A DNA stretch of 64,000 nt from Tretioscincus oriximinensis. Taxonomy: Eukaryota; Chordata; Lepidosauria; Squamata; Gymnophthalmidae. Position 1 is the first letter of the stretch. Every line of letters starts with the position of its first letter. Shown piece after piece: positions 1,646 to 50,789 of this stretch. The notes under the pieces are model-generated. The model was not told the origin of the DNA. It did not search any database and was given only the letters and a program-made list of their open reading frames with translations. Where the stretch lies: assembly GCA_022410635.1 (NCBI GenBank), contig JAJVDF010000135.1, positions 64,734-128,733 on the forward strand. Direction: 5' to 3'. A program made the position numbers and the translations under genes.

Positions 1646-1834
1646 ACATAAGAACATAAGAGCCATACTGGATCAGGCCACAGCCCATCTAGTCCAGCAT
1701 TCTGTCTCACACAAAGACCCACCAGATGCACCTGGGCAGTCCGAACAGAGGAAAGCAAAACATGACTCCCTGCAAATAGTATTTTAGGAGTCCTGCCTGT
1801 TGCTCCATCCCAGAGGCAACATCCAGACATCCAT

Positions 1835-4700: not shown

Positions 4701-4740
4701 AACTGGATGCTGCCAGCTCCTTTCGGCTTTCCCCCAGATA

Positions 4741-5634
4741 TCAGTTTAAAAGCTGCTCTGCAATCTTTTTAATATNATGCACCAGCAGCCTGGTTCCATC
4801 TTGGTTCCAGTGCAACCTGTCCCTTTTGTGCAGGTATGGCCTGTCCCAAAATGTCCCCCAGTTCCTGACAAATCTAAATCCTTCCTCACNACACCACAGC
4901 CTCATCCACGCATCGAAGCTTCTAATCTCTAGTCCTGTGCATGGTACAGGTAGCATTTCAGAAAATGCTACCTTGGAGGTCCTGGATTTCAATCTACCTA
5001 GCAACCTAAATTTGACTTCCAGGACTCCCCGCTTGGTTCTCCCAACANTGTTCGTACCAACATGTATCACAACACCTGGCTACACACCAGCACTGTCTAA
5101 CAGCCTATCTAGATGTACTGTAATGTCCGCAACATTAGCGCCCGGCAGGCAAGTTACCATGCGGTCATTACACCCATTGCACATCCTCCTCTCAATATGT
5201 CTAACAATCGAATTACCCACTGCAAGAATCCCCCCTTCCTCCACCCTTGTAGGACTGTCCTTGGTGCAAGAGGATACCAGCACATCTACTAATGAAGGGG
5301 TTCCTACTGAGGGAAGCTGTCCCTCTTCCTTGCTCTGATGTTCTCTTTGCCTCAGACCCTGATTCTCCAAGGCAGCTTGAGTGGTGTACTCCTGGGAGTG
5401 GGATGCTCCCACTGCATCCCTGGAGGTCTCGTCCGGATGCCTATTTTTGTCTCTCTGCTTCTCCAGGTCAGCTACCTTGGCTTCAAGGGAAGAAACACGT
5501 TCCCTGAGAGTCAGGAGCTCCTTGCACCGAACACCCCCCTCCATGACTGCTCACCAGTAGGTAGATTGTCATACATCTGACACTCAGTGCAAAACGGGAA
5601 GCCCTGTTCCCCCTGCTGGTTCTCTACCTTCATT
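4741..5634 (-). pseudogene. CR1/L3 ORF1: coiled coil plus SGNH-esterase-like domain, decayed
   Basis: The likely original start is the ATG at 5634-5632, followed within 20 codons by a FCTEC cysteine pair. A one-base shift near 5560 separates this N-terminus from the rest. Next comes a heptad-like stretch (RERVSSLEAKVADLEKQ, near 5500-5450), probably a coiled coil for trimer or RNP assembly. The SGNH-type esterase blocks follow: GNSIVRH (usual form GDSxxR, so the Asp is replaced by Asn), HVGTN (block III) and RDRLHWN (block V, D-x-x-H). One in-frame stop near 5084 splits the domain. Esterase domains in ORF1 of CR1-like elements are established. Their role in retrotransposition is not settled. 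Coordinates end at the LLN terminus before the ORF2 region. Confidence 0.8.
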
Positions 5635-5640
5635 CCTAAT

Positions 5641-6290
5641 ATATTTATAATTTACTTTTATTACTATTAAAATTCTCTTCTGTTTCAAGATCCTTTAGTT
5701 ATGGTTATAATCTGAGATATTTTTAGTAAAACTATTAAAATTATTTCTTTAGTATATGTTATGAAGTGAATTTTCTTTCAATATATTAAAATATTTAGGT
5801 TGGTTTTTTTTTTAAAAAAAAACCTTTCTGTTGGATATAATTAAATTTGTAATGTTTTTAAAATGAACAAAACTAGCTTTTTTTAAAGAAAAATCTTTTT
5901 CTTTTTTTTTAGTAATTTGTATAATGTTTATATCTCATACTCAATTGTAACAACAAAATATCGGAGCTCACCCCACAGTGGAGCTGTTTTTTTTTATTAT
6001 TGTTGGCTAGTATTTTAAAAATATATATAAAATCTAAATAGAATTATCTTTTAGTTGAGCTGGAAAAATTTCGGTTTGCTAAAAGTCTCCAAACTCCAAG
6101 CTCTCTCTCCTGGCAATTTTCTGCCCTTCTTCCTTGGGCTGGAAAGAGGAAGTGACTGAGTTGGTTTGCTAGCTACTCCCTCTGACTCACCAGATTGTTT
6201 TGCTGAAGCATTATTTTGGAGGGGAAATGAACTCCCTGCTCCACAGAAACAAACAGGATTTTTTTTTNAAAAAAAGAAAATTCATAACAA
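5641..6290 (-). other. Possible 5' UTR of the CR1/L3 element
   Basis: Directly upstream (minus sense) of the CR1 ORF1 lies very AT-rich sequence with homopolymers, then a more balanced stretch at 6050-6240. No other copy in the window reaches this far, so the boundary cannot be fixed by comparison. It may be part of the LINE or older flanking DNA. Confidence 0.3.
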
Positions 6291-7176
6291 TTAAAAGACT
6301 TAGGTTGAATCCACACAGCAAATTCTTACCTGGATTGGAGTGACACAGAAGCAGCTTCACCACACTGGATCTCACCTCAACTATGATCTGTGTGCTGAAA
6401 AGCTCTGAAGGTCTGGGTTGTCCTGTAGCTTGTTAATTCTGAGCCGCTTTTGAAGTCCTATCACTGTGTGGCACATGGAAGTTCAGGACTTCCACAGCTG
6501 TACTGAGAAGGTGCAAAAAGTCTCGCGAGTTAAGGGAACCCGCCAATCAGCTGAGCACGTGCGTATGACAGCAACAAGGGATTCCTGGATATTGCTCAGC
6601 AGGTAACTGCCGTCCTCTCGCACTGAACTTACCAGCAGCTCCATGCAATATCCCAGGTAAGTGTGTGTGTAGAGGTGATTGGGTATAGCCTGCAAAGCCC
6701 TGAAAATGCATGGCATAGCCTTGTGTGTGGGGAAAGCCTTAATTGGGATCTTGCTATTGTACCTTAGGACCATCATGGCATTTTTTTACCACTAATGAGA
6801 ATCACCAGATCAAAAAAATAAAGAAATGGAAAGCAGGACCAGAGTATCAAAAATTAGGACAATACCAGGACTGAAAATTGTCAAAGAAATGGTAATAGGC
6901 AGAAGTTCGTGAGAGTTATTTTTCTCCTTCAAAGAACAATCTCAAAACATTCTTCCCCTTATAGGCTTTTCTAGACATAGTAGGGTCCCTGAGTCAAGTT
7001 AGGACACTCCTGATTGGAATCTGGAAACAACAGCAGCCTGCGATGGGACGTTCTGTCTCTTTTAGGAGAATAAATAAATAGGAAAGGGGTAGGGAAGGCA
7101 CAGATTGCTAGGATAACAAGATTTTGGTTGAATTTATTAGTTTTCCTATATACAGACATTGCTCCATGATTGCTGG
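6291..7176. other. Unassigned; possible Harbinger-like MITE end at 6299
   Basis: The sequence CTTAGGTTGAATCCACACAG at 6299 resembles the left end of the TTA-flanked MITEs at 42657 and 34070. A matching right end was not found. The 6483-6776 minus reading frame has no recognisable motif. Nothing else is identified. Confidence 0.3.
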
Positions 7177-7188
7177 ATGATGATGATG

Positions 7189-7252
<64 letters not shown>
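7177..7252. repeat. (GAT)n then (TAA)n microsatellite, left flank of the R4 LINE
   Basis: A few GAT units pass into a pure ATA/TAA tract that runs into the assembly gap. With the matching (TAA)n tract at 9457-9528 it brackets the R4-type LINE. (TAA)n is the known target of Dong-type elements of the R4 clade. Confidence 0.95.
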
Positions 7253-8197
7253 NNNNNNNNNNNNNNNNNNNNNNNNNNNNNNNNNNNNNNNNNNNNNNNN
7301 NNNNNNNNNNNNNNNNNNNNNNNNNNNNNNNNNNNNNNNNNNNNNNNNNNNNNNNNNNNNNNNNNNNNNNNNNNNNNNNNNNNNNNNNNNNNNNNNNNNN
7401 NNNNNNNNNNNNNNNNNNNNNNNNNNNNNNNNNNNNNNNNNNNNNNNNNNNNNNNNNNNNNNNNNNNNNNNNNNNNNNNNNNNNNNNNNNNNNNNNNNNN
7501 NNNNNNNNNNNNNNNNNNNNNNNNNNNNNNNNNNNNNNNNNNNNNNNNNNNNNNNNNNNNNNNNNNNNNNNNNNNNNNNNNNNNNNNNNNNNNNNNNNNN
7601 NNNNNNNNNNNNNNNNNNNNNNNNNNNNNNNNNNNNNNNNNNNNNNNNNNNNNNNNNNNNNNNNNNNNNNNNNNNNNNNNNNNNNNNNNNNNNNNNNNNN
7701 NNNNNNNNNNNNNNNNNNNNNNNNNNNNNNNNNNNNNNNNNNNNNNNNNNNNNNNNNNNNNNNNNNNNNNNNNNNNNNNNNNNNNNNNNNNNNNNNNNNN
7801 NNNNNNNNNNNNNNNNNNNNNNNNNNNNNNNNNNNNNNNNNNNNNNNNNNNNNNNNNNNNNNNNNNNNNNNNNNNNNNNNNNNNNNNNNNNNNNNNNNNN
7901 NNNNNNNNNNNNNNNNNNNNNNNNNNNNNNNNNNNNNNNNNNNNNNNNNNNNNNNNNNNNNNNNNNNNNNNNNNNNNNNNNNNNNNNNNNNNNNNNNNNN
8001 NNNNNNNNNNNNNNNNNNNNNNNNNNNNNNNNNNNNNNNNNNNNNNNNNNNNNNNNNNNNNNNNNNNNNNNNNNNNNNNNNNNNNNNNNNNNNNNNNNNN
8101 NNNNNNNNNNNNNNNNNNNNNNNNNNNNNNNNNNNNNNNNNNNNNNNNNNNNNNNNNNNNNNNNNNNNNNNNNNNNNNNNNNNNNNNNNNNNNNNNN
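7253..8197. other. Assembly gap, 945 N
   Basis: Only N. It starts inside a (TAA)n tract and ends inside the R4 reverse-transcriptase frame, so the missing sequence probably holds the 5' part of that LINE. The N count may not be the true length. Confidence 0.99.
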
Positions 8198-9365
8198 TGT
8201 GGTCAGCAAAGAATATACCCAAAGGATCAGGAAAATTCTGAGAAGCAAATTGAACGGTGGGAATACAATCAAAGCCATAAACACCTGGGCCCTTCCTGTC
8301 ATCAGATACACTGCTGATATCATAAACTGGACACAAGCAGAGCTTGATAATCTGGACAGAAAAACAAGAAAACTGATGACAATTCACTACTCATTACATC
8401 CTCGTAGTGATGTAGACAGGCTATACCTGCCTCGAAAATCAGGTGGCAGGGGACTTCTGCAAGTAAAACAAACAGTTGAAGAAGAGAAGCACTCACTGGC
8501 AGAATACGTCAGCAACAGTAAAGAACCTGCACTGATTGAAGTCACGAACAGGAAAGTACTCAAAGCCCAGCAAACAAAAAATCAGTATCGGAAAACTGCA
8601 ATACAAACTCGAGAGGACAGCTGGCGCAACAAAGCCTTGCATGGACAGTTCCTTGATAAAATCGAAGGAAAAGTTGACAAAGAAAAGACCTGGCTATGGC
8701 TGAAAAATGGTTCGCTGAAGAAGGAAACAGAGGGCTTGATACTTGCTGCACAAGAANAGGCTATCAGGACAAATGCAATCAAAGCCAGAATTGAAAAATC
8801 AACTGATGACCCAAAATGCAGACTGTGCCAAGAAGCTGATGAAACGATGGACCACATCCTCAGCTGCTGCAAGAAAATTGCACAGACTACAAACAGAGGC
8901 ACAATTATGTGGCACAAATGATACACTGGAACCTTTGCCAGAACTACCATCTTCCAGTAGTAAAGAACTGGTGGGATCACAAACCAGAGAAGGTTACAGA
9001 AAACGAACATGCAAAAATACTCTGGGACTTCCGGATCCAGACTGACAAGGTTTTGGAACACAATACTCCTGACATCACAATTGTGGAAAAGAACAAAGTG
9101 TGGATCGTTGATGTTGCCATTCCTGGGGACAGTAGAATTGTAGAAAAACAGCACGATATCAAGACCTGAAAATTGAACTGCAGAGACTCTGGCACAAACC
9201 AATGAAAGTGATTCCAGTGGTAATCGGCACACTGGGGGCTGTACCCAAAGACCTGGCCCAACACTTGAAGACAATTGGCATTGACAAAATCACCATCTGT
9301 CAATTGCAAAAAGCCACTTTGCTCGGATCTGCGCGCATCATACGAAAATACATCACACAGTCCTA
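8198..9365 (+). pseudogene. R4/Dong-type ORF: RT C-terminus, CCHC knuckle and restriction-like endonuclease
   Basis: The part after the reverse-transcriptase core runs from 8198 to about 8885 in one frame (AINTWALPVIRYTADIINW, LPRKSGGRGLLQVKQ). The knuckle follows as CRLC-x8-H-x4-C near 8818-8872. A frameshift near 8885 moves the text to the frame holding NTPDITIVEKNKVWIVDVAIPG (9063-9130). There the PD and the later VD of a PD-(D/E)xK-type nuclease can be seen. A second shift near 9165 leads to the C-terminal block LGAVPKDLAQHLKTIGIDK and ends with an ARIIRKY motif near 9350. Two frameshifts and one N make it inactive as assembled. Either shift could be a sequencing error, because the text is otherwise free of stops. 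Product of an intact copy: site-specific nicking and target-primed reverse transcription. Confidence 0.85.
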
Positions 9366-9456
9366 GACGCTTGGGAAGTGTTCGACTTTGTGATATTGAG
9401 ATACGAAATCCAGCATATCTATCTCGTTTGCTGTGGTGTACTGTTGCTTTTATGTC
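8198..9456 (+). mobile_element. R4/Dong-type LINE, 3' half
   Basis: The open frame from the gap edge continues through a region with strong R4-clade character. It ends in a CCHC knuckle and a restriction-like endonuclease domain. Elements of this clade carry their endonuclease at the C-terminus, unlike CR1, L1 and L2, which carry an apurinic-type nuclease at the N-terminus. The short 3' UTR ends directly in (AAT)n without a poly-A tail. The TAA tract on both sides fits insertion into a TAA microsatellite, as known for Dong. The 5' half is in the gap. Confidence 0.88.

Positions 9457-9528
<72 letters not shown>
9457..9528. repeat. (TAA)n microsatellite, right flank of the R4 LINE
   Basis: A pure AAT repeat of 24 units directly abuts the 3' end of the R4-type element. 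It may combine the element's own 3' tail repeat and the remaining target tract. Confidence 0.97.
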
Positions 9529-10322
9529 CAGCTAAATACTGATGTTTGGTAAAACAAGCCTCCTGGTCCTCCTTGCTATTCAATGAGCATTTGGATCAAA
9601 TTTCAAACTTTTTTGAGACAAGTTTGAAATACAGGGTGGGGGGACTTCATGCAAATCTCTGGAAGGGAGACAATTCCGCTATAATTAAATCAAGTTAGAT
9701 CATTCCTATTATTAATACACGTGGCAACTTTTTTGAACTCTGAAAAATTATCTTTCAGTAAACACAGCACCCTTATTTTAGAAATTCTCTCATTTATTGC
9801 CCCCACCAAAGCAAAGTGTATATATTAATCAATTAATTATTGGTGAAGTTGTATTCAAGCACCATAACTGTTGCACCATAGCAAAAATTTCGCTATGCTG
9901 CCTGCCTGCCTGCCTGGATATTAATTAGCAATTTTTGCCTCCATGTGACCCCTTAACCTCGTACATTTGTGCTCTTGCTAAATATAATCNAGCAGTAATT
10001 TTGCTCTTTGCTATTTGGCATTATTCAGAGTGATCATTAAAATCCCTAGTCTCTTTGGAACCTGCAGATAGGAAGATTTTTTACATGAATGTTGCAATTC
10101 ACTTAATAACACTTAATGAAGTTGTCCTATAAGTAATGTCAAATGTAAACAACAAGAAAAAATATTTTTTTTGTTTATTTTCTCATATTCTTTTTGGCCA
10201 CAGATGAAAAGTCTTAACATCTTCTATATGCTTCCTCTCTTTTTAAATAATGTTATGTTCATTAACATAACATCAACACCCTTCCCTACTTTTGGGTATT
10301 GTTTTAGTATCTTATTCTGTTT
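9529..10322. other. Unassigned intergenic stretch
   Basis: No gene or named repeat recognised. It holds a short (TGCC)n run near 9899-9915. Confidence 0.5.
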
Positions 10323-10387
10323 TTAATGTTAACCACCCTGAAACCTTCAGGTAAAGGGTCGTATAGAAATTCAAATAAACAAATAAA
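10323..10387 (+). repeat. L2/MIR-type 3' tail fragment
   Basis: The block CCCTGAAACCTTCAGGTA, followed by a short unit ending in AAATAAACAAATAAA, matches in the sense direction the 3' tail of the L2 element at 31302 and of the SINE at 59021. Only the tail remains, so LINE or SINE origin cannot be told. Confidence 0.7.
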
Positions 10388-10975
10388 GGATATCCTAGGA
10401 CTTATATCCATTAATGAGAGGCTGCTTTCTATCTCAAATATTCTAGAAAAAAAATTATCCAGAGATACTTAAATCTACAGTCTTTAAAATTTAGAATATT
10501 ACTGGAGAAGTCATTAAACATGTGTTCTAGAATATCTGCTTTTTGATAGTGATCTCCCAAGCTGGGTGCTACCCTAGTTCAAATTGAACATACACTGCTT
10601 GATCAGTAACATAAGAGTTGCTTATAAATCAGAGCTTGATTTGCCTGCACAAAAATAAATTGGATCTATTTGATTGTTTTTTTTTAAAAAAAAATACAAC
10701 AACAGATTTAACTGTCTTTAATAGGCTATAAAGGTAAAGAAGAGATTTTGTGTAAGACTTCTTCAGGTGAAGTACTCAGATCTTGCCAGACAGCTAAAGG
10801 AAAACATGATCCCAGTGATCTTGAGATACTATTTTATACCTCAGGAGGAGGTGGAGGAAGTGGGAGCAAAAACTATCTTAAGNTGCATCCATCTGTCAGT
10901 CTCAAGGCTTGATAGGAGCACTCCAGAAGCAGCAATGCCAGATTGGATCACAGGCTTTCTGTACTAATGGCATTG
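10388..10975. other. Unassigned intergenic stretch
   Basis: AT-rich. No gene or named repeat recognised. Confidence 0.5.
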
Positions 10976-11330
10976 AAAAGGCCCACTTCCATGTTACTTT
11001 GGAAAGTGGGGAAATAACGTTCCAGTGGCACAGACCTTGATTGCAGTGCTCATCCACCCATATGACCCAGCATCAGGGCTTCCTCGCTGCTGGAATGAAA
11101 TCTCACTCAAAGTTGCACAAGACCTTGTTTCCAGCAGCCAATCAGGGAGGCAGTGCATGGGAGCCATGTCACTGTGATTCCAGTGTCCCGGAGGTTGTCA
11201 TGGTGCCAATGCAATCAGCACAAGAAGGCCACCTGTGTGCAAGGCAACATATACATGTGAGCGAGCCATGAGTCCGCTCTCCCTTAAAATGCACCACATA
11301 GGCACGTATGTGGACATGGCCTTAGAGGAC
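10976..11330 (+). repeat. Unnamed repeat family Y, copy 1
   Basis: Shares clear homology with the reverse complement of 56345-56590. Common blocks include CTTCCTCGCTGCTGGA (CATCCTCGCTGCTGGA in the other copy), CCAGCAGCCAATCAGGGAG and GCACCACATAGG. It ends with ATGTGGACATGGCCTTAG. There is no coding sequence. Probably a non-autonomous DNA element, perhaps hAT-like, but terminal repeats were not established. Confidence 0.6.
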
Positions 11331-12067
11331 TCTGAACAACAACAAATAGACATATACAAACATTGTGGTTGGTGTGAATATACCAGTTTTTAGGGAAATC
11401 TGTATTTTACTGGGCCTCAGTTAATTTTTGCAAGCAAAAATTTTCAGCCTTCTCATTTTTTACTTCTATAATCCTGAACATCTATACAGGACTGGATTTG
11501 GATAAAGATTTCAGATCATGTTACCTGCTACTTCATTCCCTGCTGTACAATATATGTAAAGACTGTCACCCCACTACCAAGACTGTTACTGCTTGGAGAA
11601 TTTACTACTGCTAATTGCACAGCACAATCTAAGTGGAGAAAGAAGATCAATACATGATCAGTTATTTGGTATTATGTGGCCTATTCTTGTTGGTTTATTA
11701 TTGCTTGTAATGGGCCAGTTTTTAAATACCCTTGAGTAACTGGTCTACTATTAGTTAGAAGAACTAGAAAGTAGGAGAAAGAAAGTGTTGATTTTCAAAG
11801 CATATATACTAACTGAGCAAGAGAGAAGACATTTTTCATTGTGCCACTGGAAAAGAGAGAAAGACAGAACCTGCTACTGGGTGCTGAATTTTTTGCTCAC
11901 CTGTATTTCAATGGAAATTTACTTTGTAATACATTTGGTTTTCATGAGCTGCTTTGACAAGTCTGGAACTATCAAGTGCCTCACTTGACAACACCAAACT
12001 CTTCATCCCCCTTATAGTTAGATGTTTTTCAATAAAAACTGCTCTTCTTCACTGGCTTTACGTGTCT
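11331..12067. other. Unassigned intergenic stretch
   Basis: No gene or named repeat recognised on either strand. Confidence 0.5.
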
Positions 12068-12845
12068 TCTTTTTTGGAATTTAGAACACTTTATTATTTT
12101 TAATACGCATATTGCAGTAAAACAGATTTCGTTTTATACAATGTCTCCAAAATTATTCCCCTTTTTCCTCCCTCCCTCCCCCACTTCCTCCCCTATTTAC
12201 AAACTAATTCAATCCTTTGGCAGGAGGGGCATAGATCTCAAAAATTAATCTTAATCTTAACTTCATCCCTTCACTCGCTAATCTTGCCCCTATATAATTT
12301 TTTTACAGTCAACCCATTTTTGTTTGCAGCTTCTCATTTTCTGAATATTGATTCTACAATTGGAGTTATCAGTCACATTTTCATGCATTTTCTGAATTGT
12401 CCATNACATACTGTCTTTCCACCCACCACTGGAACAGTATGTGCCCATGAAATCATTTTATTTACCACATCTCTTACACTGTCTGACATAATAGTTTTCA
12501 AGTCTGCATGTAACATTGCCATTTTACTTGTGATTCTTATATTTAATAAAAAAAAATATTTATTTCTCTTTCCACCTTTACCTAAAATTCTTTAACCATA
12601 TGTATGAAAGTAACTCTTTGTTGCCATTCATGCCAACATGTTCTAATAACATTTGGAGGAAAAAAATGTGACAATTGTGCCAGTGTTCTATACCATTCCT
12701 TCTTGTATCCTTCATACAATTATTTTTTGTTTCCTGTTTCACATAATTTCTTTTCTTTTATCGTCCCTTTTTATATTTATATTCATACTCCATATTTTTT
12801 CTGCTATCTCTTGATGTACTGACATAATTTGTCTATATATTTTCC
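12068..12845 (-). mobile_element. 5'-truncated L1 remnant (ORF2 C-terminus and 3' UTR)
   Basis: On the minus strand the segment near 12705-12600 reads WYRTLAQLSHFFPP, then RTCWHEWQQRVTFIHIW. This aligns with the L1 ORF2 C-terminal block (LSHML..CWHC..H.W..C) seen intact at 49300. The second Cys is replaced by Trp and the last Cys is lost, so the zinc knuckle is dead. Downstream the frame is broken by stops. The 3' UTR has a G-rich tract (C-rich on plus, 12158-12194) and ends in an A-rich tail seen as T-rich sequence at 12068-12100. No target-site duplication was recognised. An old copy. Confidence 0.7.
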
Positions 12846-12994
12846 TTGCTAGCCCATTTCCTTTTCAGTAGCTTTACTCTTACAATTTGGATGATGTTAT
12901 GAACAGTACAATGAATAGTACAAAATTTTACATTAATTTTAACCATCCTCTTTCACACAGCAGACTCACTTCTTTCTGAGCAAGGGATTATATT

Positions 12995-13384
12995 CAGTGG
13001 TGAGATACAAAAAATTTGACAACCGAATCTAGCAAAATTATTATATTCAAGCTCATACAGGCACCCAATAGTCCCTCCCTACTCTAGATCCTACCCATGC
13101 TCCACCTCCTGCCAGAAATGACATCACTTAAGATGTCACCTCCTCCCACATCCACCCAATGTAATTTAAGATGTCATTTTTGAGACACTTGTCATTTTTG
13201 GTTTCTGCATCCTGGAACTCCATCACTCAATATGGCATTCCTGGAAGCAGCAACCAGAAATTACATTGGGTGGATATGGGAGGAGGTGTGAGAGAGAGAG
13301 ACTTGATTGCAAGTGCATTTTAACAACTTGTTCACTGAACTCAACAATTAGATATTGGTTCCATCGAAGTGGTGTGAACCACTG
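12995..13384. mobile_element. hAT-like MITE with a long internal inverted repeat
   Basis: Starts CAGTGGTGAG and ends GAACCACTG, giving short inverted ends of the hAT type. Inside, 13137-13167 and 13258-13288 are 31-bp inverted repeats with one mismatch (CCTCCCACATCCACCCAATG on the left). No transposase sequence. No clear 8-bp duplication outside the ends. A non-autonomous copy that depends on a transposase from elsewhere. Confidence 0.6.
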
Positions 13385-13388
13385 ATAC

Positions 13389-15690
13389 TGATACAGATTA
13401 ATTAGTCTCTAAGTGCTACTAGCCCCTTTGCTGGACTTTCTACTGGACTAATATGGCTATTTCTCTGAAATTATATACTATGGTTCTCAAGACTCTTTCC
13501 TTGATATGGGATTGGGATAGATACTAGATATTTTCATTTGATATGTAAGAATGATCCAATTTTAATATATTACAGATATTGAATTCTCACAAGCCGAATT
13601 AAACATAAAAATACTCTAATAGTAGGCTGCATCAAAAAGAGATATCTCTCCCCCCCCCCCCTTTAACTGTAGAAATATAAAGAAAAAAAGTTGGGAGTGC
13701 TTAACCAGCTGAAACATTCTAGTTTTGTAAATAACATTTTTAAAAAATCGACAAAAGAACAAGTGACCGTATCTGAAAAAGCATTTCTTCTTTCTGTTCT
13801 GTTTCTCTAACCTCAANTTTATCTCCAATTGTAATATGAAGACTTGTAAATATATGCTACTAATTTTAAGTATGAAATNTATGTAGTAAATATAAGAAGT
13901 TATAAATTTATGTTTATGTATAAATTGTTTGCTAGAATATGCATTAGTTTTTAAAAAATCTGTATTTTTCTTTCACATTTTCTAGCTTTTCTCTTAATAG
14001 GATTTTTTTCTGTGTTTACACTTGCCACTGCAGAATGTATGTTCCTCTCAACACTTTTACATTTAGAAAGAACTAGTTTTGTTTATTGCTCATTTCCTCC
14101 AAAACCGTTGAAGCATATGCCTAGCAAAGTAGAAAGTACAGATGTCATAGTCCAGTGAACCAAACAGCAGAACACACCAAGGTCAAAGCTGCAGTACAAA
14201 CTGTAATGATTTCTGTTTGGTTTTCACATAATTACTGTTCACAGGGCATGTAGGTCACTCTGCTTAATAAATAGAGCAAAACAGTGTTGGAAGAATTAAT
14301 AGCTAAGAAGTAGCAACAGGTACTAAAAAAGTTGTTAAGAACAAACGATGCTCTACTCAGAGAGTACATACTTTTCATTCGTTATCAGTCATATCTCTGA
14401 AGCCTGCTCTACCAAAGAGAAAGAGTGGATGGGAGGGAAGGAGAGATGGCAATACTTAAAATATATTTTTATATTTTGCATAGTTTGTCTTTTACTGCTG
14501 TGGCCCTCTTTTAGACCTGCTGATGAAGGTTTAGATATAAACTTATAACTAAAAATAATCCTGGGCTCTTCGGTCAGCTAATAAAATTAAAAAAATGTTA
14601 TTGTTGTCCCTAATATTTTCATTCTGAAATTTGGTTTCAGTAGACTGAAGTCAAATATTCTGTTTTAATCAAGTTACATTTGATTAATGTAAAAACTATG
14701 GGGAAATTTTAAATTTAATGCTATGAATTCTGCACGTACTTAACACAATACACATGAAAATGTTTTACATTTGTTTAAAGCCTCTGAAAAGGACCTTTGC
14801 AGGAGATGGTAAAAACAACTGCTTTACAGGAAAAAAAGAGATGGGACATGCTCCATTTTCACACATGCTTGGAAGGATAATCCTGACACTGACACATTGA
14901 TCTGTTCAAGCATCCCTCTGGCAGCCAGAGCTGTTGTCTAGACTCAGGTGAGGTCCACCATCAAAGCAATCCAAACATAACCTAGTTTAAACTGCCTGGA
15001 AAACAGAAGGTTAATAGTTCAATTTGGCATATAATCCTTGAAATAGTCATAGACATAAACATACTGAACACTGATCTTTGCCAAGAAAATTGTTTGCTGG
15101 TAGTCACGTCAGATCCTGCTCAATGGTACCCAAAGCAACAACGTGAATAACAATGGACTTATTGGAAGATGATTCAACTATATGATGAAACTCGTAAGGA
15201 ATTACATCTGTGGATTCAATAGTGCATAGAAACTAACTTGTGTTTATTTATTATTAATTCCCAGGAAACCAGAGATACTGTCTTGTGAATCTTTAATTCT
15301 CCTTATTGATTGTTGTTGATGCTGGGTTTTGCCAAGTAAAATCTATGTACACCTTCATCCTGAAGAGGGAACAGATATTGTTTGTCCATGTCCATGCTCA
15401 CTTGCAACATGCCACCAAAGACAGAATGCAGCAAAGAATAAACCTAGGGCCAAATTGTTACAAACCTCCAGTGACCTTTGCTATGCAGAGGTTGGGTGGG
15501 CTTCATTCATAGAAGTTATTCAGTTTTAAGGACCTGAACTCTTGGTTAATTTCAACAATCGTGTGGTTGTAAGAATGAAAAAAATAATTGGTGGATAGAG
15601 TCAACATATTTATGTCTTAATGTAACTATTATTTATATTTATATCAGAGAGAGAGACAAAGGGAGAAACTATAATTCCATTGAGAGGCCA
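13389..15690. other. Unassigned intergenic stretch
   Basis: AT-rich. Contains a C homopolymer at about 13651-13662 and no convincing gene or repeat family. The scattered short reading frames show no motif. Confidence 0.5.
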
Positions 15691-15757
15691 CACATATTTA
15701 TTTTATTTATTTATATTTATACCCCACCCTAAACCCGAAGGTCTCAGGGAGGCAAAC
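15691..15757 (-). repeat. L2/MIR-type 3' tail fragment
   Basis: (TTTA)-rich run, then a TTATACCCCACCC block and CCCGAAGGTCTCAGGGAGGC. This is the same tail as in the L2 LINE at 31302-31380 and the SINE at 59080-59125, in minus orientation. The GAGACCTTCGGG hairpin core is kept. The body of the element is missing, and a CR1 fragment follows directly. Confidence 0.75.
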
Positions 15758-15762
15758 AATGA

Positions 15763-15930
15763 ACAAATGTTGTTTTGCCTCTTTAAAAATCTGTGGTGAG
15801 GCCACATTTGGAATACTGTGTTCAATTCTGGTCATCACATCTCAAGAGAGATATTGTGGAATTAGAGAAGGTGCAGAAAAGGGCAACAAGAATGATCAAG
15901 GGTCTGGAGCACCTCCCTTAAGAAGCAAGG
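15763..15930 (+). mobile_element. CR1/L3 ORF2 fragment (C-terminal)
   Basis: Plus-strand text equals the CR1 ORF2 segment that reads [19 protein letters not shown]...[18 protein letters not shown] in the 39.6-kb copy, here with breaks. Both ends are lost. The 3' UTR and the 8-bp tail repeat are absent, so the piece was cut out of a larger copy or deleted at both sides. Confidence 0.8.
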
Positions 15931-15939
15931 GAAAGGAGA

Positions 15940-17040
15940 GGAAGTGAACCAAGATTGTTGGTGGGCAGGTCTTTTAAAACCTCCCTTCCAGTAGGAGCTA
16001 CAGGCAGTCAGCTGGTACAAAACATCTTCCAGGCTCCTCTTGCTTCTGTAAGCATCCTGTCCTTGTCCCAGCCCATTCATTTGTTCTGGGGTCCTTCAGG
16101 CTGCATTTCTTGGTTGCAGTACCTCACCATGCGGCTGGCAGAACACCATCCACCGTTGTTCAGCTAATACTTTGCACATACACTTCCAGAAGAGGAAATG
16201 AAGGATTAGCCAAGTTACTATTGAAACAAAGGGGCTGGGATGGGGTGGCAAAGAGGTGGCAAAAGGTGGTTAGACCGGAAATGCAAAGTAGAAATCAAAC
16301 TGCAAAAGTTGAAATTACAGGCTTGGACAGTAACTTTTAAGCAATAGTAAATAAACTTCTCAATATTACAAACTATAGAATATTAATAGAGGCTTGCATA
16401 AAAATATTTACAGGTATAAAATACAACATGAATCAGTGCTATATGACACGGTAACAGGCCATGTTCTCCTATGATGTTCTCCTATGTCTCTCCTAGAAAG
16501 CCTAAGAATACTAATGAATCCTAATAAAAATATATATTCCGTGAACTGTAGCCATGTCCTTCTTGACTCAATGGATGGTGTAACACCGTTGCCTCATGCT
16601 ATCCACATATCCTACTGTATCTCTCAACCTAACTGATCAAGCTTTAAAATGAGATGATTCAAAGATCATGTTTTAAGTGGCTTTGTCTCATGGGCTGGAA
16701 AATCAGATTAAATTTTCATAGCTTCTGGATAAAATACTACATGTGGCTTGCTAAGTGAATAATATCCACTAATAAGTAAAGCATTTTAACTTCAAAGTAA
16801 TTGGAAAACTCAATGTTCAAATGGATCCAGTTCATTAATAGTCTATCTTTTTATTCCCTTATTATTTCACACATGGATTATCTTTCTCTCCTCTTTCTTC
16901 CTCCCTCTCTCCCTCTCACTTGACAGTATGACAAAGGGATTGGGGAAAATCACTAGTATAAAGAGAAAAAAGTGCATCTTAGTTCTATCAACAGCAAAGT
17001 ACAAGGTTTGAAAACAAGCTACAGTTTCAATATAAGTAGT
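15940..17040. other. Unassigned stretch upstream of the CpG island
   Basis: No named repeat. A pyrimidine-rich run (CTCTTTCTTCCTCCCTCTCT and on) lies at 16883-16920, about 130 bp before GC content and CpG density rise sharply. It may belong to an upstream promoter region, but no specific site is supported. Confidence 0.4.
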
Positions 17041-17281
17041 CTAAACCAGTAGAAGTCTGCTGCCGCTGTGACTACAGCAGCGCAGGCATTTGCCGAGGGG
17101 GAAGGAGGAGACCCCTCTAGGAAACCGCTCATTTCGCTGCCCGGAAAGAGGGCGCGAAAGGATGACGCGGTTTCCTGGTGTCAGACGGCTTAAAAGCCCT
17201 CCGACAGACACCACTTCCTCCTTCTCCTTCGGACGCGCGAAAGGACCGCACNTGTCTTTCGCGCTCCGCAAGTAGCCCCCG

Positions 17282-17292
17282 GCCGCCATTTT
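17282..17292 (-). promoter_or_regulatory. YY1-type motif
   Basis: GCCGCCATTTT on plus reads AAAATGGCGGC on minus, which matches the AAnATGGCGGC form of the YY1 site found close to many CpG-island start sites. YY1 also tethers XIST RNA at its own locus in mammals. The parallel here is only suggestive. Confidence 0.5.
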
Positions 17293-17749
17293 AGCCGCCG
17301 CGTGGGGCCTACTTTTTACTTTAGAAGCTGCCACCGCCGCTTCCCTGCGCCAAAACCAGNAACCGGAGGTTAGTTAAGCTAATTTTCAAGCCTTTGGGCT
17401 TGTTTTACCTCCGGGGTTTTGGCGGGTGGGAAGCTCTCTAGGGACCAGGCTCCGAGGGGCCTTGGGCCAAAGAGAGAGGTGGACGGGAAGGGGCGGGAGG
17501 TTTCTGGAGTGGGGGAAGCAGAATCCCCCCCCCCTCCGGATTTCCTCCCAAGTGGGGTCTGGATGCCGAGGTGCACCCCTCCCCTTTCAGGCCCTTGCAG
17601 CCGTTCGAGGTCGCCTCGTCAAGCCCCTGCTAGGCCGTCGCGGCCGTTTTATTGTGGCCACCNCAGCGAGCGCGTGGTCTGCACTAGGAGAAGCACGCCG
17701 CCACCGAGGAGCACGCCGTGCCGCTGCTTTGGACGATCGGGACCATCTG

Positions 17750-17803
17750 ACGGAGGTAAGCAAGCGACTTGCAGGCCTTACCGGCCTAGCAGCTTACCTC
17801 CGT
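17750..17803 (+). other. Hairpin around the exon-1 splice donor
   Basis: ACGGAGGTAAGC at 17750-17761 and GCTTACCTCCGT at 17792-17803 form a perfect 12-bp stem. Inside the 30-base loop, GGCC at 17774-17777 can pair with GGCC at 17783-17786. The stem buries the GTAAGC donor. Its mirror image puts an equally good donor on the minus strand. Confidence 0.7.
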
Positions 17804-17850
17804 GGGGCCCCGGGGGGGTTGGGTGACTCCTAGCCCAGGCTCCAAAGGGC

Positions 17851-18642
17851 CTGGGGAAGGAGGGCCGGCGGCGGCGTGGGGAGGGCGGGCCATAGCGTCT
17901 GCTTTTGACCCCCTTCCCCTCCAAAATATTCGGAGCAGCTAGCTCCAGCCCCCCAAGGGGTGGAAAAATGGGAGTTGGGGTGATTCACCCCACCCCAAAT
18001 AGTAACAGGAGCAGTCTTGCTCCAGCNGGCTGCATGGAGGAGGCTCCGAGTTCTCACGGAGCAGCAGCCACTTGGGTACTAGGGTGAGAGGTGGGACTCT
18101 CACCGGTTGTTTAATTTTCAGGCATTAGTTTTCTATAAGAATAAGAATAATATGATATTAATAATAATAAAATAATTAAAAAATTAAATAAAACACATAA
18201 ATATACATTAAAAACAAAGCAAAATATCCATTCTTGGTCTAGGTGAATTGTGAGCCTTTAGGCCAGTGTTTCTTGCTTTGAATAATTATAATAATATATA
18301 TAGTTTTGCTGTTGCACTGTTGGGATNCTGTGCAGCTATGCTTTAATATTGCCATTTGCCCTCTGAGATACTACTGATTGGCCATAGATAATAAGATTTA
18401 GCATTAATGTACATGAATAAAAAGTCGCAGAAGTTGTGCAACTCCTAATGACAACTTGAATGCTCCATTGTCCTTAAAAGGCACATCTATTACACAGTGT
18501 TGACATCAGCATGGACATACAACACAGTAATACCAGATTTCATGGAGTTATTCATACCAATGTTGCTCTGGATGCAGTATATCTAGCAGATGGCTCTAAT
18601 AGCATTTTGAAGAAAAAGCAATAATATATAAATCTTCTTCAG
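17851..18642 (+). other. Intron-like AT-rich stretch with acceptor
   Basis: After the GC-rich part up to about 18100 the sequence turns AT-rich. No repeat family was named. It ends in a short pyrimidine tract and AG (AATCTTCTTCAG, 18631-18642), after which the tandem array begins at once. Confidence 0.4.
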
Positions 18643-20365
18643 GTGCACAGCCATATAATTAGTGCTGGTGCAGGGTTAATCAGGGTTTGGTTAAGTTTGG
18701 TGTGTAATCCTTATATATTGCTAGAGTGCTGTTACAAAGGGCAGCCATCGCAGTGCCTATTATGGGTTCCCATACAGATTCTCATACACATGCTGCAGCA
18801 CTTTGCAATATGGGTCAGACCTGGAGACTTCCATAAGTTCTTTTAAAATCATTCATANGCAGGGTCAGTGCTGGTACATATAGGGCAGGCTTCTGGCTGC
18901 CTGCAGTAAGTTCATAAAATATCCTCATCACGTGCCAAAGTACTGGTTCCATATGGGGCAGGCTCTTCAGTTCCTGCCATAAGTTTTCATATTGTTTCTC
19001 GCACTCATACTCAAGTACTATTGCAATATAGACCAGCCACTTTAGTGACTGCCACGGGTGCGCATACAGCTAGGTTCATTCACAGGTTGATGTGCTGTGG
19101 CTATACNGGTTGGACATCTAGGGGCCTGCCATAAGTTCTTANACGGTTTCTTATATTCATGCTACAGTGCTGGCCAGATGGGGTGGGCTCCTGGCTGCCT
19201 GGCATATTTTCCCATATAATAATCTCACATGCATGCTAAGCATACACATAATAAAGTGATTTTGCATATTGGGCAGGCTCTTGGGTGCAGGCCGTAAATT
19301 ATTATATCTGCACATTCTAATGTGATGGGGCATATGGGGCATAAGTCTCATACAAAGACTCATACACATCTAAAGTATGGAGCAGATGGGGCGAGCGGCT
19401 GGGCGCCGGACATAAGTTATTGTCTGCCTCAAGTCCTTGTACTATTTCTCATACAGATTCTATAGCGTGGGCGCTTTTTAGGGCTGGCTCCTACGTGCCT
19501 GCCACAAGTCCTTGTACAAATTCTCATACACATGCTATATTGCGGGCGCTTATAAGGCTGGCTCCTATGTTCCAGCCATAAGTCCTGGTAAAAATTCTCA
19601 TACACATGCCATAAGTCCTGGTGCAAATTCTCATACACATGCTATAATACTGACACAAGCTATAGTGCTGCGCTTATAGGGCTGGCTCCTATGTTCCTGC
19701 CATAAGTCCTTGTACAAATTCTCATACACATGCTATAGTACTGGTGATTATGAGGTGGGTTGTAGGGTGCTGCCACTAGTTCTCATAAGAATCCTCATAC
19801 ACACGCCAAAATGCTAGTGCATTTAGGGCAGGCTCCTTGGTGCCTGCCGTAATTTTGGATACGAATGCTTGGACATTGCTAGAGTGCCGTTGCATTTTAG
19901 GGCATGCACAAAATTTTTCAAATATAATTCTCAAGGGCCTGCCATAAGTCCTCTTATAAATTGTCATACACATGCTACAGGCCCGGGTGCAATATAGGGC
20001 AGAGGCATAAGTTCCTGCCATAAGTTCATATTATTACGAGAACAACAATGAATGTTCATACTTATCTAATGCATGGCACTATATAGGTAGGCATAACAAG
20101 GGCTAGTGCAGTCTTGGGCAGGCCCCGCTGTGCCTGCAATAATTTCTCATACAATTCACATATATAAAAATGCGCTGTTGCAATATAGGGTGGACACTTC
20201 AGCCTACTATAAATTATGTCTATCCTCATGCACATAATTAACTGCTGGTGCAATACTGGGCAGACGTCTCAGGGCCTGCCATACGAATTTAGTACCTAAA
20301 ATCTCATATATGAAGTGCCAGTGCATTATGAGGCATTCATGGGGGTCCTGCGATAGTGCATTTAT
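18643..20365 (+). repeat. Tandem array of diverged ~75-90-bp units with a conserved stem-loop
   Basis: A unit of the form TCATACACATGCTATAGTGC, then a short GGTGCATATA-like link, GGGCAGGCTCC, GTGCCTGCCATAAG and TCCTTGTACAAATTC recurs more than 20 times with strong divergence. The block at 19433-19750 is most alike: unit starts at 19433, 19508, 19582, 19615 (partial) and 19705, so the local period is 74-75 bp. In many units GGCAGGC and GCCTGCC face each other across 8-10 bases and can pair (18885-18904, 18957-18978, 19827-19848, 20118-20137). One unit has a double change that keeps pairing (GGCTGG/CCAGCC, 19556-19577). No protein frame is kept across units. No similarity to the transposons in this window was seen. 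Confidence 0.85.
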
Positions 20366-22379
20366 GTGTTGATGAATTACTTATGGATCTTTAAGATGGG
20401 TAGATCCAGTGACGATAAAATAATTTTTCTTCATTCTTAATTACTTAGGGACAATTTCGTGGCATTAAGAGGCCATTCCTTAGNGGATATTGATTCACGG
20501 ATCACGAGATGGGTGCACCTTTAAAATTATTCTCCTAGACAATAAAATAATCCGCATCACCCTGTTCGGGATCTTGCAGATATTTCCTTTGACATTATAT
20601 CTGAGCAGTGAAAATAACTTTCCCTCATCACATCAAAAGGAGGATGCTTTCTATAAGGACTTGCTAGGATACTAAGTCCATTAGCATTGTGGGTATGGTC
20701 GATAGGAATTCCAGATCCACTTGAGTTTCTTCACTTGGGGTAAGCAGATATGTTCCTCTCGGACAGCGTCTGGATGGATGTTTTTACCAGTAGCAGTACA
20801 GGATTGGTCATACAGATCTTTGCTGCAATGCTTTACCATGATTCAAGGGATAAGGAGATACTTCTTTTATACAAAATGCTTTGCTATAAGTCAGGGGCAG
20901 TCAGAATTGTCTGCCGCCATCATCACTATCCTGCAGGCAGGAATGGCTACTCAACTTAACAATAACATGCCTGGCTTTCTAAAATTTTACCATAGGCATC
21001 AAAGAATGGCGATAGATTTACAGTACATGGGAATTATGATGTGGTGGTAATTATAATGTTGNGAGCATTAAAATGCTCTCCTTGAATCTATAACTTGCCA
21101 AGGGATCATTAGGCTTGAGTAAAAATTCAGGGTATCCGAAGGCATTTCCCTTAGCATTAATATGCTAAAACGTTAAGGCTGGGGCATAATCTACTACTAC
21201 ACAATGAAACTCCTGCTCATAATATGGATGCAACCAAGTACCTTTGCTGTGCTGGACAGTCACCTGGGGACAGTCTGGTAAAGATCTGCACTTACATAGG
21301 GCGGGCATATACGTGGCAATGGCAATTAAATAGAGGAATATTGCACAAGAGGATGCTGAGATAAGGAAGCGTACATCGCGGAGGTACTGTACATCTTATG
21401 CACGGAAGTTCATAAGAATAAGCGCGACTAGTTCACTGCTCTACATTGATACCTAGTAGTAGAACATTCTACAGCTATCCGACACAAGGGTTGCAAGTCC
21501 GGAAAACTTAAGCTGTAGCCAAGCTTATTAAAACGTACGTATTTGAAAACAAAAGCTTTGCAGCTTATAACATTAGATCAGCCGTCTATGGCTCATGATG
21601 AACTTGCACTGAAAAACCCTCACATTTGCAGAGTGCAGATTTTACAGGTGGTGCAATATCTACTTGAACACCCTCTGAACGCCTTGCAGCAAATATTTTA
21701 CCTATGGCACTGCAGGCAGGGAACAATAATGTTGCCATTTGCCATAGAGTCAAAGGACAGGATATCAGGAATGGCGTTCCTTAGCTAAAAACTGATTGCA
21801 ATGATATTGTCAGTGTCAGTACAGGTCCAGTGCAGTAAGATGTCAGGGGAAGCTGAAGCCTTGGCCATTATTACCTTGAAGTTCAAATAAATCAGATCAG
21901 CCATGGTTATAACAACTTGCTGAGGTCGGCCTTGGCTTAAATTTGGAGCGTCACGATGACCCTGCCTCCTGGTGGTGCATGCAGGTATATTTGACTTGCC
22001 GGAAGGGCAACACCACAATGGTAAGTGCTTTATTTTAACAGGGACAAGCACATGGTCAGAGTACCACTGTCCGGGGCTTTGGCACCTGCTTGGGTCAGGT
22101 GCATCGGGTGCTCAAGCCATTGGATCGGGCTGGCCTTTTGATGCTCAGTCAGCTGGTTGGAAGCCACACATGCTGCGTTGGGGCCTGCCCTGGTCCGGTA
22201 CAGATTACTTGGACCGTGGGAGGGATGTGGCCATTAAGAATGCCCGACATATATTGGGACAATCAAGGAGCTGGGAGCAGTAAAAATTGCTGACAAGTAT
22301 CTAATTTAGCAAGATACGATTGAAAAGGTCTTTGCCCATGTTTACGTTACTGTGTTTTTGTTTTTTCTCTCTTATTGGA
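20366..22379. other. Unassigned CpG-retaining stretch after the array
   Basis: No LINE, SINE or MITE text is recognised. CpG sites are frequent for this window (GTACATCGCGGAGG, AAGCGCGACTAG, AACGTACGT). A frame at 21543-21788 has an IxQVxQYLLE-like text that loosely recalls tyrosine-recombinase retrotransposons, but no catalytic residues can be placed. A consensus donor is at 22020/22021 and an AACAG acceptor-like end lies only 21 bases further, too close for a real intron. It may be lncRNA exon, a very decayed DIRS-like element, or both. Confidence 0.4.
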
Positions 22380-23711
22380 NCTGCTATGTGGTTTGAAGTG
22401 GAGTGGCACTACTGAACCCCGGCCAAGTGAATCAGCCCAGGGGAAGAGTAAACACCAAGGTAGTACGGAGGATGACACAGCCGGGCGTCGTGGCAGTTGG
22501 GCACAATGCCTCCAATACAATGGCAAACGCCTGGTTCAGGCCTGGTGGAGTTCACGTGTCGGGGCTGGTATGTGGGCATGGCTGGAGAACTCAGGAAGAG
22601 TTCTTTGGAATGTTAGTATGGAGTAGGAGGTGGTCTGGCGGAGAGCATGGATGCTCTAGTGGCGGTGGCACAGCTTGGCGAAGTCGAGAGGAGCCAAGAA
22701 AACCTGAAGAAAGAGGTCCCCATGGCTACCTCATAGCTGGAGGGCCCTTCATAAAAGGGTTCCGAACTTGTGTGCTTACCTGTGGGGGCCGGTAGGTTGA
22801 ACGCAGGTTNNNNNNNNNNNNNNNNNNNNNNNNNNNNNNNNNNNNNNNNNNNNNNNNNNNNNNNNNNNNNNNNNNNNNNNNNNNNNNNNNNNNNNNNNNN
22901 NNNNNNNNNNNNNNNNNNNNNNNNNNNNNNNNNNNNNNNNNNNNNNNNNNNNNNNNNNNNNNNNNNNNNNNNNNNNNNNNNNNNNNNNNNNNNNNNNNNN
23001 NNNNNNNNNNNNNNNNNNNNNNNNNNNNNNNNNNNNNNNNNNNNNNNNNNNNNNNNNNNNNNNNNNNNNNNNNNNNNNNNNNNNNNNNNNNNNNNNNNNN
23101 NNNNNNNNNNNNNNNNNNNNNNNNNNNNNNNNNNNNNNNNNNNNNNNNNNNNNNNNNNNNNNNNNNNNNNNNNNNNNNNNNNNNNNNNNNNNNNNNNNNN
23201 NNNNNNNNNNNNNNNNNNNNNNNNNNNNNNNNNNNNNNNNNNNNNNNNNNNNNNNNNNNNNNNNNNNNNNNNNNNNNNNNNNNNNNNNNNNNNNNNNNNN
23301 NNNNNNNNNNNNNNNNNNNNNNNNNNNNNNNNNNNNNNNNNNNNNNNNNNNNNNNNNNNNNNNNNNNNNNNNNNNNNNNNNNNNNNNNNNNNNNNNNNNN
23401 NNNNNNNNNNNNNNNNNNNNNNNNNNNNNNNNNNNNNNNNNNNNNNNNNNNNNNNNNNNNNNNNNNNNNNNNNNNNNNNACCTGGGGCGACTGCCAAGCT
23501 GTTGCGCCTGGCCACACCCCTACTCAAGCCATGGCCCAATTCCCTCCACTTCTGGGTGATATTCCAAAAGTACTGATCAATATTATTTAGATTTCGGGTT
23601 GCGTTAATGTTACGAGTTTGCGTCAGGGTTTTTTTTGGAACATTGTTAACTGGCTAATAAATTACTCATGTTCAATTTACAACTGAGTGGTCTCCATTCT
23701 CTTCCCTCCAA
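22380..23711 (+). repeat. Unclassified repeat family X, copy 1 (with gap)
   Basis: Two blocks match the other X copies. CTCTAGTGGCGGTGGCACAG (22650) matches CTCTTGTGGCAGTAGCACAT (38805), and GGAGGGCCCTTCATAAAAGG (22739) matches GGAGGGCCCCCTTTAAGGGG (38896). After the gap, CCCCTACTCAAGCCATGG (23517), AATAAATT (23656) and TTCCCTCCA (23703-23711) match 45627-45860. It ends near 23711. The text around the GGGCCC block would read EGPFKGF-like in translation, as in DIRS-like elements of reptiles, but I cannot confirm the class. A solo LTR or other non-autonomous element is possible. Confidence 0.6.
22810..23479. other. Assembly gap, 670 N
   Basis: Only N, inside X copy 1. Reading frames that cross it are artefacts. 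Confidence 0.99.
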
Positions 23712-26260
23712 GGCAAATTGAAAATGCTCTTTCATTTGTATAGATCTCTGTTTTAAGATTAACATTTATGGGATAGCTGCTGGAGGACCACACTAGTTGC
23801 AATTTCTGAACCATTTGCAAAATAATCTTCACATTGAGTGTGCTGTGATAGGCCACCAATTTGAAGGCCAGAAGAGTATGGGCCAGAATAACCCTGTGTT
23901 CCGTACCAAAGCCTGCAGTTGCTTAACAGGAAGTACCCTTAGAAAACACTATCACTTGAGCTTGAAAAGGCTGCAGGGCTGAGAAAACTTNTTTGATTTT
24001 AGAGACCAGGACAAACAGCATGCTTATCTTGTTTGATTAAGTTTCTATCTCTTTGTCTGCACCCAGCTAATCACTTCGTCCAAGCAATGCTCATTTATTA
24101 TATCATAGATGAAGATAAAATAGTGATGTAGAGCTGGCTACCTACCAAAGTACACTATAGAAAGCTGCTGGGTGATAGGATTAGAACAAACAAGGAAAAC
24201 TATTTCCTGTTCTTCAACTAGGAGGGTTATTAGTCTATGAAAATTACTACCAGAAAAGTGACAAATTCATGAAGGCCCTGAGGAGGAAATACTGCCCTTG
24301 TTAGAGAGGCATGCAGGTTAGTTCTTAATGTAATTTGCAAGGAATTGAAAGCAGGTGAAGACTTTGCCTTTGTCTTCTGCTTGACATTCATAGAAAGTTG
24401 ATGGGTCACTGTGTGAGACAATGAGACAGAATGTTGGATTAGATTATTTTTTGCCTGATCTTCCATGGTTCCTTTTATGTTCTGATAGATTCAACAGTGT
24501 AAAGAGTTATAGGCAAAGTAAGGTAGGTCTTAGGTGGGACCTGCTGCAGATTTCACTTGGTAGATGATTCCAAGATATAGTCTAGACTAGAGCTAAGTGC
24601 AGAAAAAAATCTAATAGATTTTGAATCCACAATAGAGATGGAACACATTAATCGTTGCTACACCTATATCAGTGATCTCTATTCTGATATAAGCAGCAGC
24701 ACATCCACACTTACATGCTGTCCCAAAATGCATTTTTAATCCAACTTCAATCCTGAAGAACTGTACTAAATCAAGAAAAACTCAACCAGGTCTTCAGGAT
24801 TGGAGGTAGATTAAAAGTAATGTCAGAACAGAGGCATTGATTGGATTTGAATGAATTTGGATGTGGTTGCAGGAGGCATACATTAAACCTGCATTCTAGC
24901 ATTGTCTTGATTCTCGTACTACCCAACCTGCACTATATAGATACGTAATTATTAGTTTACTTACTATATACTTCATTTTGCTTGTTGTTGATGGACTGAA
25001 CAATTATAATTTGATAGTGATATGGAGCCAAAGAATGGTTAGATTTGATTCACAGGCTGCATCCCAACATACCCTTTCTAACATGGTCAGTGTGCCCTCA
25101 CCTTTGGCCCAGCCCTGATTAGTTAGTTCCATTCTTTATCTATTTTTCCATGGTGGAGTACAGTTTTTATCTCCTTACAAAAAGGGGTGGTTACAAGCAT
25201 CCCCCTCTTTCTGAAGGGAGGGGTGGAGAGAGGGCTCTTGTCTGTCCCTTGTGTTGCTATGAACGTCATAGAAAGGTGGTGAATCTGCATGTAGGATCTT
25301 CACAATCAGATGACTCCTCGAAGATGAGTATTGAAGAATAGGTCACTGATTAACCGTGTCTTAATCATCTCAGGAAAACCATAATGCTAGCTAATTAACT
25401 AAAGTAAACAATGAGCATCCTACACTAATTTAAGCAAACTTAGAGGCAAACTTAAAGGCAAACTGTATTAACTAAGACTAACTAGAATAAACATTAAGAT
25501 AGACTAGCTTTTCCAAATTCATAATCGCAACACCCTTCCATAATCAAAGAACTATTTACGCATTTTGGAAAATGGAGGTCAATATCTTTCTGTCATATTG
25601 GTCTTCTGACTATTGTATTGAGCTGCTCTTTGGTGCTGAACTGCAAATCCATAATTTCTACCTGGNAATTAGATCTTCGAGTGCTGTCAGCTCAATACAA
25701 AAATCTTGATATCTGATTTGAAGGAACAAGTGCAAAATGAATCTTGATCCCTTTAATAACCAATAGAACTTATTAAAAAAGCAAATTGAATGTACCTATT
25801 CTGCAGCAACTTTATAACTGTCCCCCAAAAAGTCACTATTGTTATTTTAAAAGATTTATTATTAATTTAAATGTGCTGAACTGATGTCTGGCATGTTCAA
25901 ACTATATGCAGAATTGTTTTGAAACAACCTTTTTCTCTCTATGATAAGCAGATTCAGGTCCTCTCCACATGACAAGTTAAAAACCTCTATTTTGTTAACT
26001 TAATGTGTTTGCAAAGAAAGCGGGAAGACTTTCTAATCCACGTGGGCAGACAAACTGTCTAATGAGAAACCAAAGTTCTGAGACATGCTTAGTAGCATTC
26101 TGCCCACAATAATCACATGACTAGAATGCAATTGCCTTTCCTCTCTTGTCCAGAGATTTCATTAAGAAAGAGATACATGAAGGGAAATCTGATTGAATCC
26201 AGCACCTTTCACAAAGATGTCAGGAAATATCTGCAATCAGCAGATTACGGATCCTTGCAG
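23712..26260. other. Mostly unassigned; MITE candidate at 24650-24880
   Basis: Within it, TTTTAATCCAACTTCAATCC (24734) and the later TCTTCAGGATTGGAGG-TAGATTAAAA (24791-24817) form an imperfect inverted repeat of about 27 bases, suggesting a decayed MITE. The rest has no recognised feature. Confidence 0.4.
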
Positions 26261-48595: not shown

Positions 48596-48616
48596 TCAGA
48601 ATCTAGACATTTTAAT
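48596..48616. repeat. Target-site duplication of the L1 insertion, left copy
   Basis: Twenty-one bases starting TCAGAATCTAGACATTTTAA, identical to 50109-50129. Confidence 0.97.
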
Positions 48617-50782: not shown

Positions 50783-50789
50783 CTAATGG

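What the first reader, a model, noticed from the sequence alone, without database searches (positions are those of the whole stretch)
17041..22020. Possible undescribed long non-coding RNA gene: CpG island, spliced first exon, tandem stem-loop array
Seen: a CpG island with a strong donor (CGGAG|GTAAGC, 17755), an AT-rich intron-like stretch, an acceptor (AATCTTCTTCAG, 18642), and a tandem array that starts at the first base after that acceptor. No protein frame is kept. Known: several chromosome-regulating long RNAs (XIST, Rsx) have tandem repeat modules close to their 5' end and CpG-rich promoters, and a repeat-rich long RNA has been reported in lizard dosage compensation. Inference: this locus may be such an RNA. 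I cannot tell whether it equals any known one.
Basis: partly seen in the sequence, partly recalled or inferred. Interest (0 to 1): 0.82.

Follow-up and report, generated by a model that had tools for sequence, protein, structure and literature searches.

The report
Candidate repeat-bearing noncoding RNA gene
A stretch of reptile (squamate) DNA looks like a gene for a long RNA that makes no protein, with its own promoter and an old 74-base tandem repeat, but its proposed hairpins and any sex-chromosome role are not supported by the sequence.

Summary
Most of the anatomy is real. The window has one CpG island (17.0-18.1 kb), a high-scoring donor at 17755 and a degenerate array of ~74-nt units (20 clear copies; recognisable over 18647-20365) found nowhere else in the window. 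No sign of a protein was found. Raised CpG content joins island, array and the next 2.3 kb into one block, up to about 22.7 kb, where a dispersed repeat begins. The acceptor at 18642 is weak by a simple matrix. The donor lies in a palindrome, so the antisense strand carries an equal donor and the strand is open. The 'stem-loop' claim fails: the array folds no better than shuffled sequence and shows no covariation. Best reading: a CpG-island long noncoding RNA gene of a squamate with an exonic minisatellite, at most a single-stranded, multivalent protein-binding platform. A link to dosage compensation (XIST, RSX, MAYEX) is untested and has no specific support. No RNA data and no other squamate genome were searched; the own-genome search did not complete.

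The parts
17001..18100 (.). CpG island, candidate promoter; the only one in the window
17282..17292 (-). YY1-type motif AANATGGCGGC (motif recalled), the only exact match in the window
17364..17500 (+). First copy of an old tandem duplication in the island; opens with a hairpin (17363-17414) around a donor-like site (GAG|GTTAGT, 17368)
17751..17888 (+). Second copy of the duplication; opens with a 12-bp perfect stem (17750-17761 with 17792-17803) that contains the donor
17753..17761 (+). Candidate donor, last exon base 17755; an equal donor on the - strand has its last exon base at 17798
   Evidence: matrix recalled
17756..18642 (+). Candidate intron (inferred), with AT-rich stretch 18135-18239
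18623..18643 (+). Candidate acceptor, weak by matrix (2.66)
18647..20365 (+). Degenerate tandem array of ~74-nt units, 20 clear copies plus fragments
20366..22686 (+). Rest of the exon-like block: raised CpG o/e, no similarity elsewhere in the window; donor-like site with last exon base 22020 (score 9.8, rank 16)
22687..23551 (.). Dispersed repeat (pieces match 45192-45293 and 45606-45661), interrupted by assembly gap 22810-23479; probable limit of the block
23656..23661 (+). AATAAA, a possible 3' end signal beyond the gap (others lie inside the block, such as 19250, 20541 and 21886)

Best explanation
A stand-alone RNA polymerase II noncoding RNA gene of a squamate reptile. A CpG-island promoter (17.0-18.1 kb) drives a spliced RNA, most likely to the right. 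The second exon opens with an old, diverged minisatellite of ~74-nt units and runs on to about 22.0-22.7 kb. If the RNA has a function, the array most likely acts as a multivalent, largely single-stranded platform: each unit repeats short motifs (such as TCTCATACA) that RNA-binding proteins could recognise, with no conserved hairpin. The duplicated hairpin that buries the donor may tune first-intron splicing. Shown: island, array, lack of coding signs, CpG-raised block, duplication, folding potential of the island hairpins. Inferred: transcription, strand, splicing, protein binding, any function.
For: Only CpG island in the window. CpG o/e 0.335, 0.449 and 0.494 over 18647-20365, 20366-22020 and 22021-22686, against mean 0.192 (sd 0.079, max 0.41) of 61 overlapping 1.7-kb segments outside 16.9-23.7 kb (segments with more than 300 N dropped). 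16801-22686 resembles nothing else in the window except at AT-rich 18135-18239 (E<=0.01). The array starts 4 bases past the first base after a possible acceptor. No host protein domain above cut-off in the parts of the window scanned with Pfam, and two ORFs without relatives. + strand motif density in the array: CATAC 9.9 per kb against 1.0-1.1 in two controls; YCAY 27.3 against 13.7-17.9.
Against: No RNA evidence. The acceptor is weak and the donor palindromic, so antisense is possible. On the - strand the array is enriched for GCATG (6.4 per kb against 0.6-1.3), so motif content does not favour one strand. Unit substitutions show no excess of A>G over T>C (28/273 against 27/310, P 0.57), the asymmetry I expected from germline transcription; A>T exceeds T>A (25/273 against 10/310, P 0.003) and T>G exceeds A>C (17/310 against 5/273, P 0.028), among six comparisons. 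Rates differ little between unit columns (HKY+G alpha 5.2, log-likelihood gain 2.4), so selection on the unit is weak or absent. Motif enrichment follows from repetition alone. One outside segment (8501-10200) also reaches CpG o/e 0.41.
Confidence: 0.6

Rival explanations
1. The island is an orphan (distal regulatory) CpG island and the array an untranscribed intergenic minisatellite; the splice sites are chance.
For: The acceptor is weak; column rates in the unit are nearly uniform; intergenic non-methylated islands also mark distal regulatory elements (PMC3583005, passages).
Against: CpG retention over the whole block; array start close to a possible acceptor; 45-64% of known long noncoding RNA starts in mouse and zebrafish carry such islands (PMC3583005).
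Confidence: 0.2
2. Transcription from the island runs leftward on the - strand (or both ways) and the array is not part of the main transcript.
For: Equal - strand donor at 17798 and high-scoring - strand acceptors, for example first exon base 17503 (12.9).
Against: The CpG-raised block extends to the right; 1.7-kb segments left of the island are not among the 16 highest except one at 8501-10200.
Confidence: 0.1
3. A chromosome-regulating, XIST/RSX/MAYEX-like RNA.
For: Tandem array near a presumed 5' end; squamate source; exact YY1-type motif in the island.
Against: No structured repeat; no Rfam match at gathering score; no sign of selection on the unit; YY1-type motifs are common in promoters (recalled).
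Confidence: 0.05
4. The 5' part or untranslated remnant of a longer or decayed protein-coding gene whose exons lie outside the window or in unscanned parts.
For: CpG island with a donor; donor-like site at 22020; 48401-54000 and the two gaps were not scanned.
Against: No Pfam match near the locus and no relatives for two ORFs.
Confidence: 0.05

Closest known systems
XIST (eutherian X-inactivation RNA), repeat A
   Same: Tandem repeats close to the 5' end of a noncoding transcript; YY1-type motif near the start (XIST YY1 sites recalled).
   Different: Repeat A is 26-mers in 7.5-8.5 copies with AUCG-loop hairpins and U-rich linkers (PMC5742192, passages); here ~74-nt units, about 20 copies, no AUCG in the consensus and no folding excess.
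RSX (marsupial X-inactivation RNA)
   Same: Repeat domains in a long noncoding RNA.
   Different: RSX is 27-30 kb (PMC11112854, passages); the block here is about 5.7 kb. No RSX sequence was compared.
MAYEX (green anole dosage-compensation RNA)
   Same: Squamate long noncoding RNA; the window is most likely squamate.
   Different: Cannot be compared: the primary paper is not held. Passages of five citing papers were seen; none gives its sequence or place.
FIRRE and DXZ4 (repeat arrays with CTCF sites; recalled)
   Same: Tandem array in a noncoding locus.
   Different: No CTCF-like enrichment in this array: 1 relaxed match against a shuffled mean of 0.87 (consensus recalled).

Membership tests
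Long noncoding RNA gene | Transcribed, stranded RNA longer than 200 nt | not testable with these tools
   No RNA-seq available
Long noncoding RNA gene | No conserved protein product | tested here: met
   Pfam six-frame scans of 15001-22809 empty; two ORFs without relatives; ORF length within the shuffled range
Long noncoding RNA gene | Own promoter | tested here: inconclusive
   CpG island present; no transcript start seen
XIST/RSX functional class | Tandem repeat modules near the 5' end | tested here: inconclusive
   Array present; 5'-proximal only if transcription starts in the island and runs on the + strand
XIST/RSX functional class | Structured repeat units like repeat A | tested here: not met
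XIST/RSX functional class | X-linked, sex-specific, coats its chromosome | not testable with these tools
   No chromosome assignment, expression or imaging data
Any RNA family of Rfam 15 | Match at the family's gathering score | tested here: not met
   0 matches in the window; 5 matches at E<=5 in 16800-24000, all below their gathering scores. I did not check which long noncoding RNAs Rfam holds
MAYEX | Same sequence or locus in the green anole | not testable with these tools
   Paper not held; no squamate genome at hand
Satellite or transposon | Many copies at unrelated loci | tested here: inconclusive
   No copy elsewhere in the window; own-genome search did not complete (12 tries, last)

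The most novel reading that the evidence does not exclude
A squamate repeat-rich noncoding RNA that regulates a chromosome (possibly the sex chromosome) through about 20 single-stranded protein-binding units in place of hairpins, with first-intron splicing gated by a duplicated hairpin that buries the donor.
Probability: 0.05. Interest if true: 0.85.

Novelty: new member of a known kind. Interest (0 to 1): 0.33.

Why it matters
If transcribed and conserved, it would be one more long noncoding RNA with a 5'-proximal tandem array, in a reptile lineage, and a case in which the array persists without a conserved hairpin. Only a link to a chromosome-wide function would make it important.

Tried and rejected
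Stem-loop units: rejected as a conserved feature. Of three single units that I picked, two fold well (19812-19860 z -2.24; 19541-19590 z -2.42) and one does not (18869-18920 z -0.27). Strand from G-U against A-C mismatches in the consensus stem: 11 against 12, no signal. Strand from substitution asymmetry: no A>G/T>C signal. Coding gene: no support. tRNA: none, with the tool's bacterial code. Known RNA families: none at gathering score. CTCF array: no enrichment. Pumilio sites as in NORAD (recalled): none in the array or in 20366-22020. A third copy of the island duplication: not found in 18011-18400. Donor hairpin as a rarity: perfect stems of 11 bp or more with loops up to 60 occur at 11 other places in the window, so the stem alone is not exceptional. 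Neighbouring host genes: none found; Pfam covered six frames of 1-7252, 8198-22809, 23480-48400 and 54001-63999, not 48401-54000 or the two gaps. Papers: eight answered searches listed no description of this locus or array; that is not evidence of absence from print. PMC6761961 (passages) has nothing on the locus.

Full report
What is there. The window contains one CpG island, 17.0-18.1 kb. In the six-frame Pfam scans the hits above their cut-offs were all reverse transcriptase or endonuclease domains of retroelements; three weaker hits fell below their cut-offs (GDSL lipase and synaptobrevin; zf-RVT). 48401-54000 and the two gaps were not scanned. The source is most likely a squamate: of 694 relatives of the retroelement ORF at 8199-8900 (120 listed) the first five are lizards (Phrynocephalus 77% identity over 98%, three Hemicordylus, Anolis carolinensis 83% over 78%); against that, a scorpion record is 85% identical over 67%, and many lower rows are unnamed or invertebrate. 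Species and chromosome are unknown.

The array. A profile seeded with 13 units and iterated on the window finds 20 units of about 74 nt at E<1e-6, all on the + strand; weak - strand matches inside the array (best E 0.016) reflect the palindromic part of the unit. Local alignment extends the recognisable array to 18647-20365. Mean pairwise identity is 63% over 186 of 190 pairs (range 43-93%; pairs with few shared columns dropped), so the array is old, with closer copies near 19.4-19.75 kb. The unit length is not a multiple of three.

The stem-loop claim. The consensus does contain GGCAGGC...GCCTGCC, and those columns pair far more than when slid (72.9% against 31-44%). But dealing partners anew among 19 units gives 71.0% (106 of 500 shuffles as high), and the covariation score is reached by 75 of 500. 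RNAalifold gives no pairs. Folding z-scores of the 11 tiled windows over the array average +0.10 on the + strand, against -0.03 for 42 control windows. I read the hairpin as a feature of the ancestral unit that decays without compensation.

The CpG island has structure of its own. 17364-17500 and 17751-17888 are an old tandem duplication (65% identity; score 33.3, at most 20.9 in 300 shuffles). Each copy begins with a hairpin (z -3.78 and -4.44), and the second buries the donor 17755|17756 in a 12-bp perfect stem. Because that stem is a palindrome, the antisense strand carries an equal donor at 17798. The outermost pair differs between the copies as C-G against A-U (read): a single compensated change, no proof. 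Stems of 11 bp or more occur at 11 other places in the window.

One block. CpG o/e is 0.335, 0.449 and 0.494 over the three parts of 18647-22686, against a mean of 0.192 for 61 outside segments, one of which reaches 0.41. Apart from AT-rich 18135-18239, 16801-22686 resembles nothing else in the window; from 22687 a dispersed repeat begins. This is my best evidence that island, array and the next 2.3 kb are one unit, though recent origin or local hypomethylation could do the same.

How it most likely works. Transcription from the island to the right, at least one intron, and an exonic minisatellite that is at most a multivalent single-stranded protein-binding platform. Only the anatomy is shown. 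Selection on the unit is not evident, and strand tests from the array gave no clear answer: + strand CATAC and YCAY and - strand GCATG are all enriched, as repetition alone would do.

Comparison. XIST repeat A is 26-mers in 7.5-8.5 copies with AUCG-loop hairpins (PMC5742192, passages). RSX shares k-mer groupings of its repeats with Xist but no linear homology (PMC11112854, passages). MAYEX was seen only in passages of citing papers: one says that it acts in cis in Anolis and associates with an acetyltransferase other than MOF (PMC12527168), and its title calls it an old RNA recruited for dosage compensation. Nothing here ties this locus to any of them, and nothing excludes MAYEX.

Verdict. A credible but unproven noncoding RNA gene with an exonic tandem array, ordinary in kind.

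Noticed in passing
17364-17500 and 17751-17888: Old tandem duplication in the CpG island; each copy starts with a hairpin around a donor-like GAG|GT.
   Followed up: yes
45130-45217: 29-bp perfect inverted repeat in a dispersed element related to 22687-23551.
   Followed up: partly
40998-41081: 23-bp perfect inverted repeat with a second one nested at 41024-41055.
   Followed up: no
57432-58091: Well preserved reverse transcriptase domain (Pfam 213.7 bits).
   Followed up: no
21962-21975: Near-consensus CTCF-like core on the - strand, one of the two best in the window (consensus recalled).
   Followed up: no
window-wide: 48 isolated single N bases besides two gaps (7253-8197, 22810-23479), perhaps masked ambiguous positions.
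   Followed up: no
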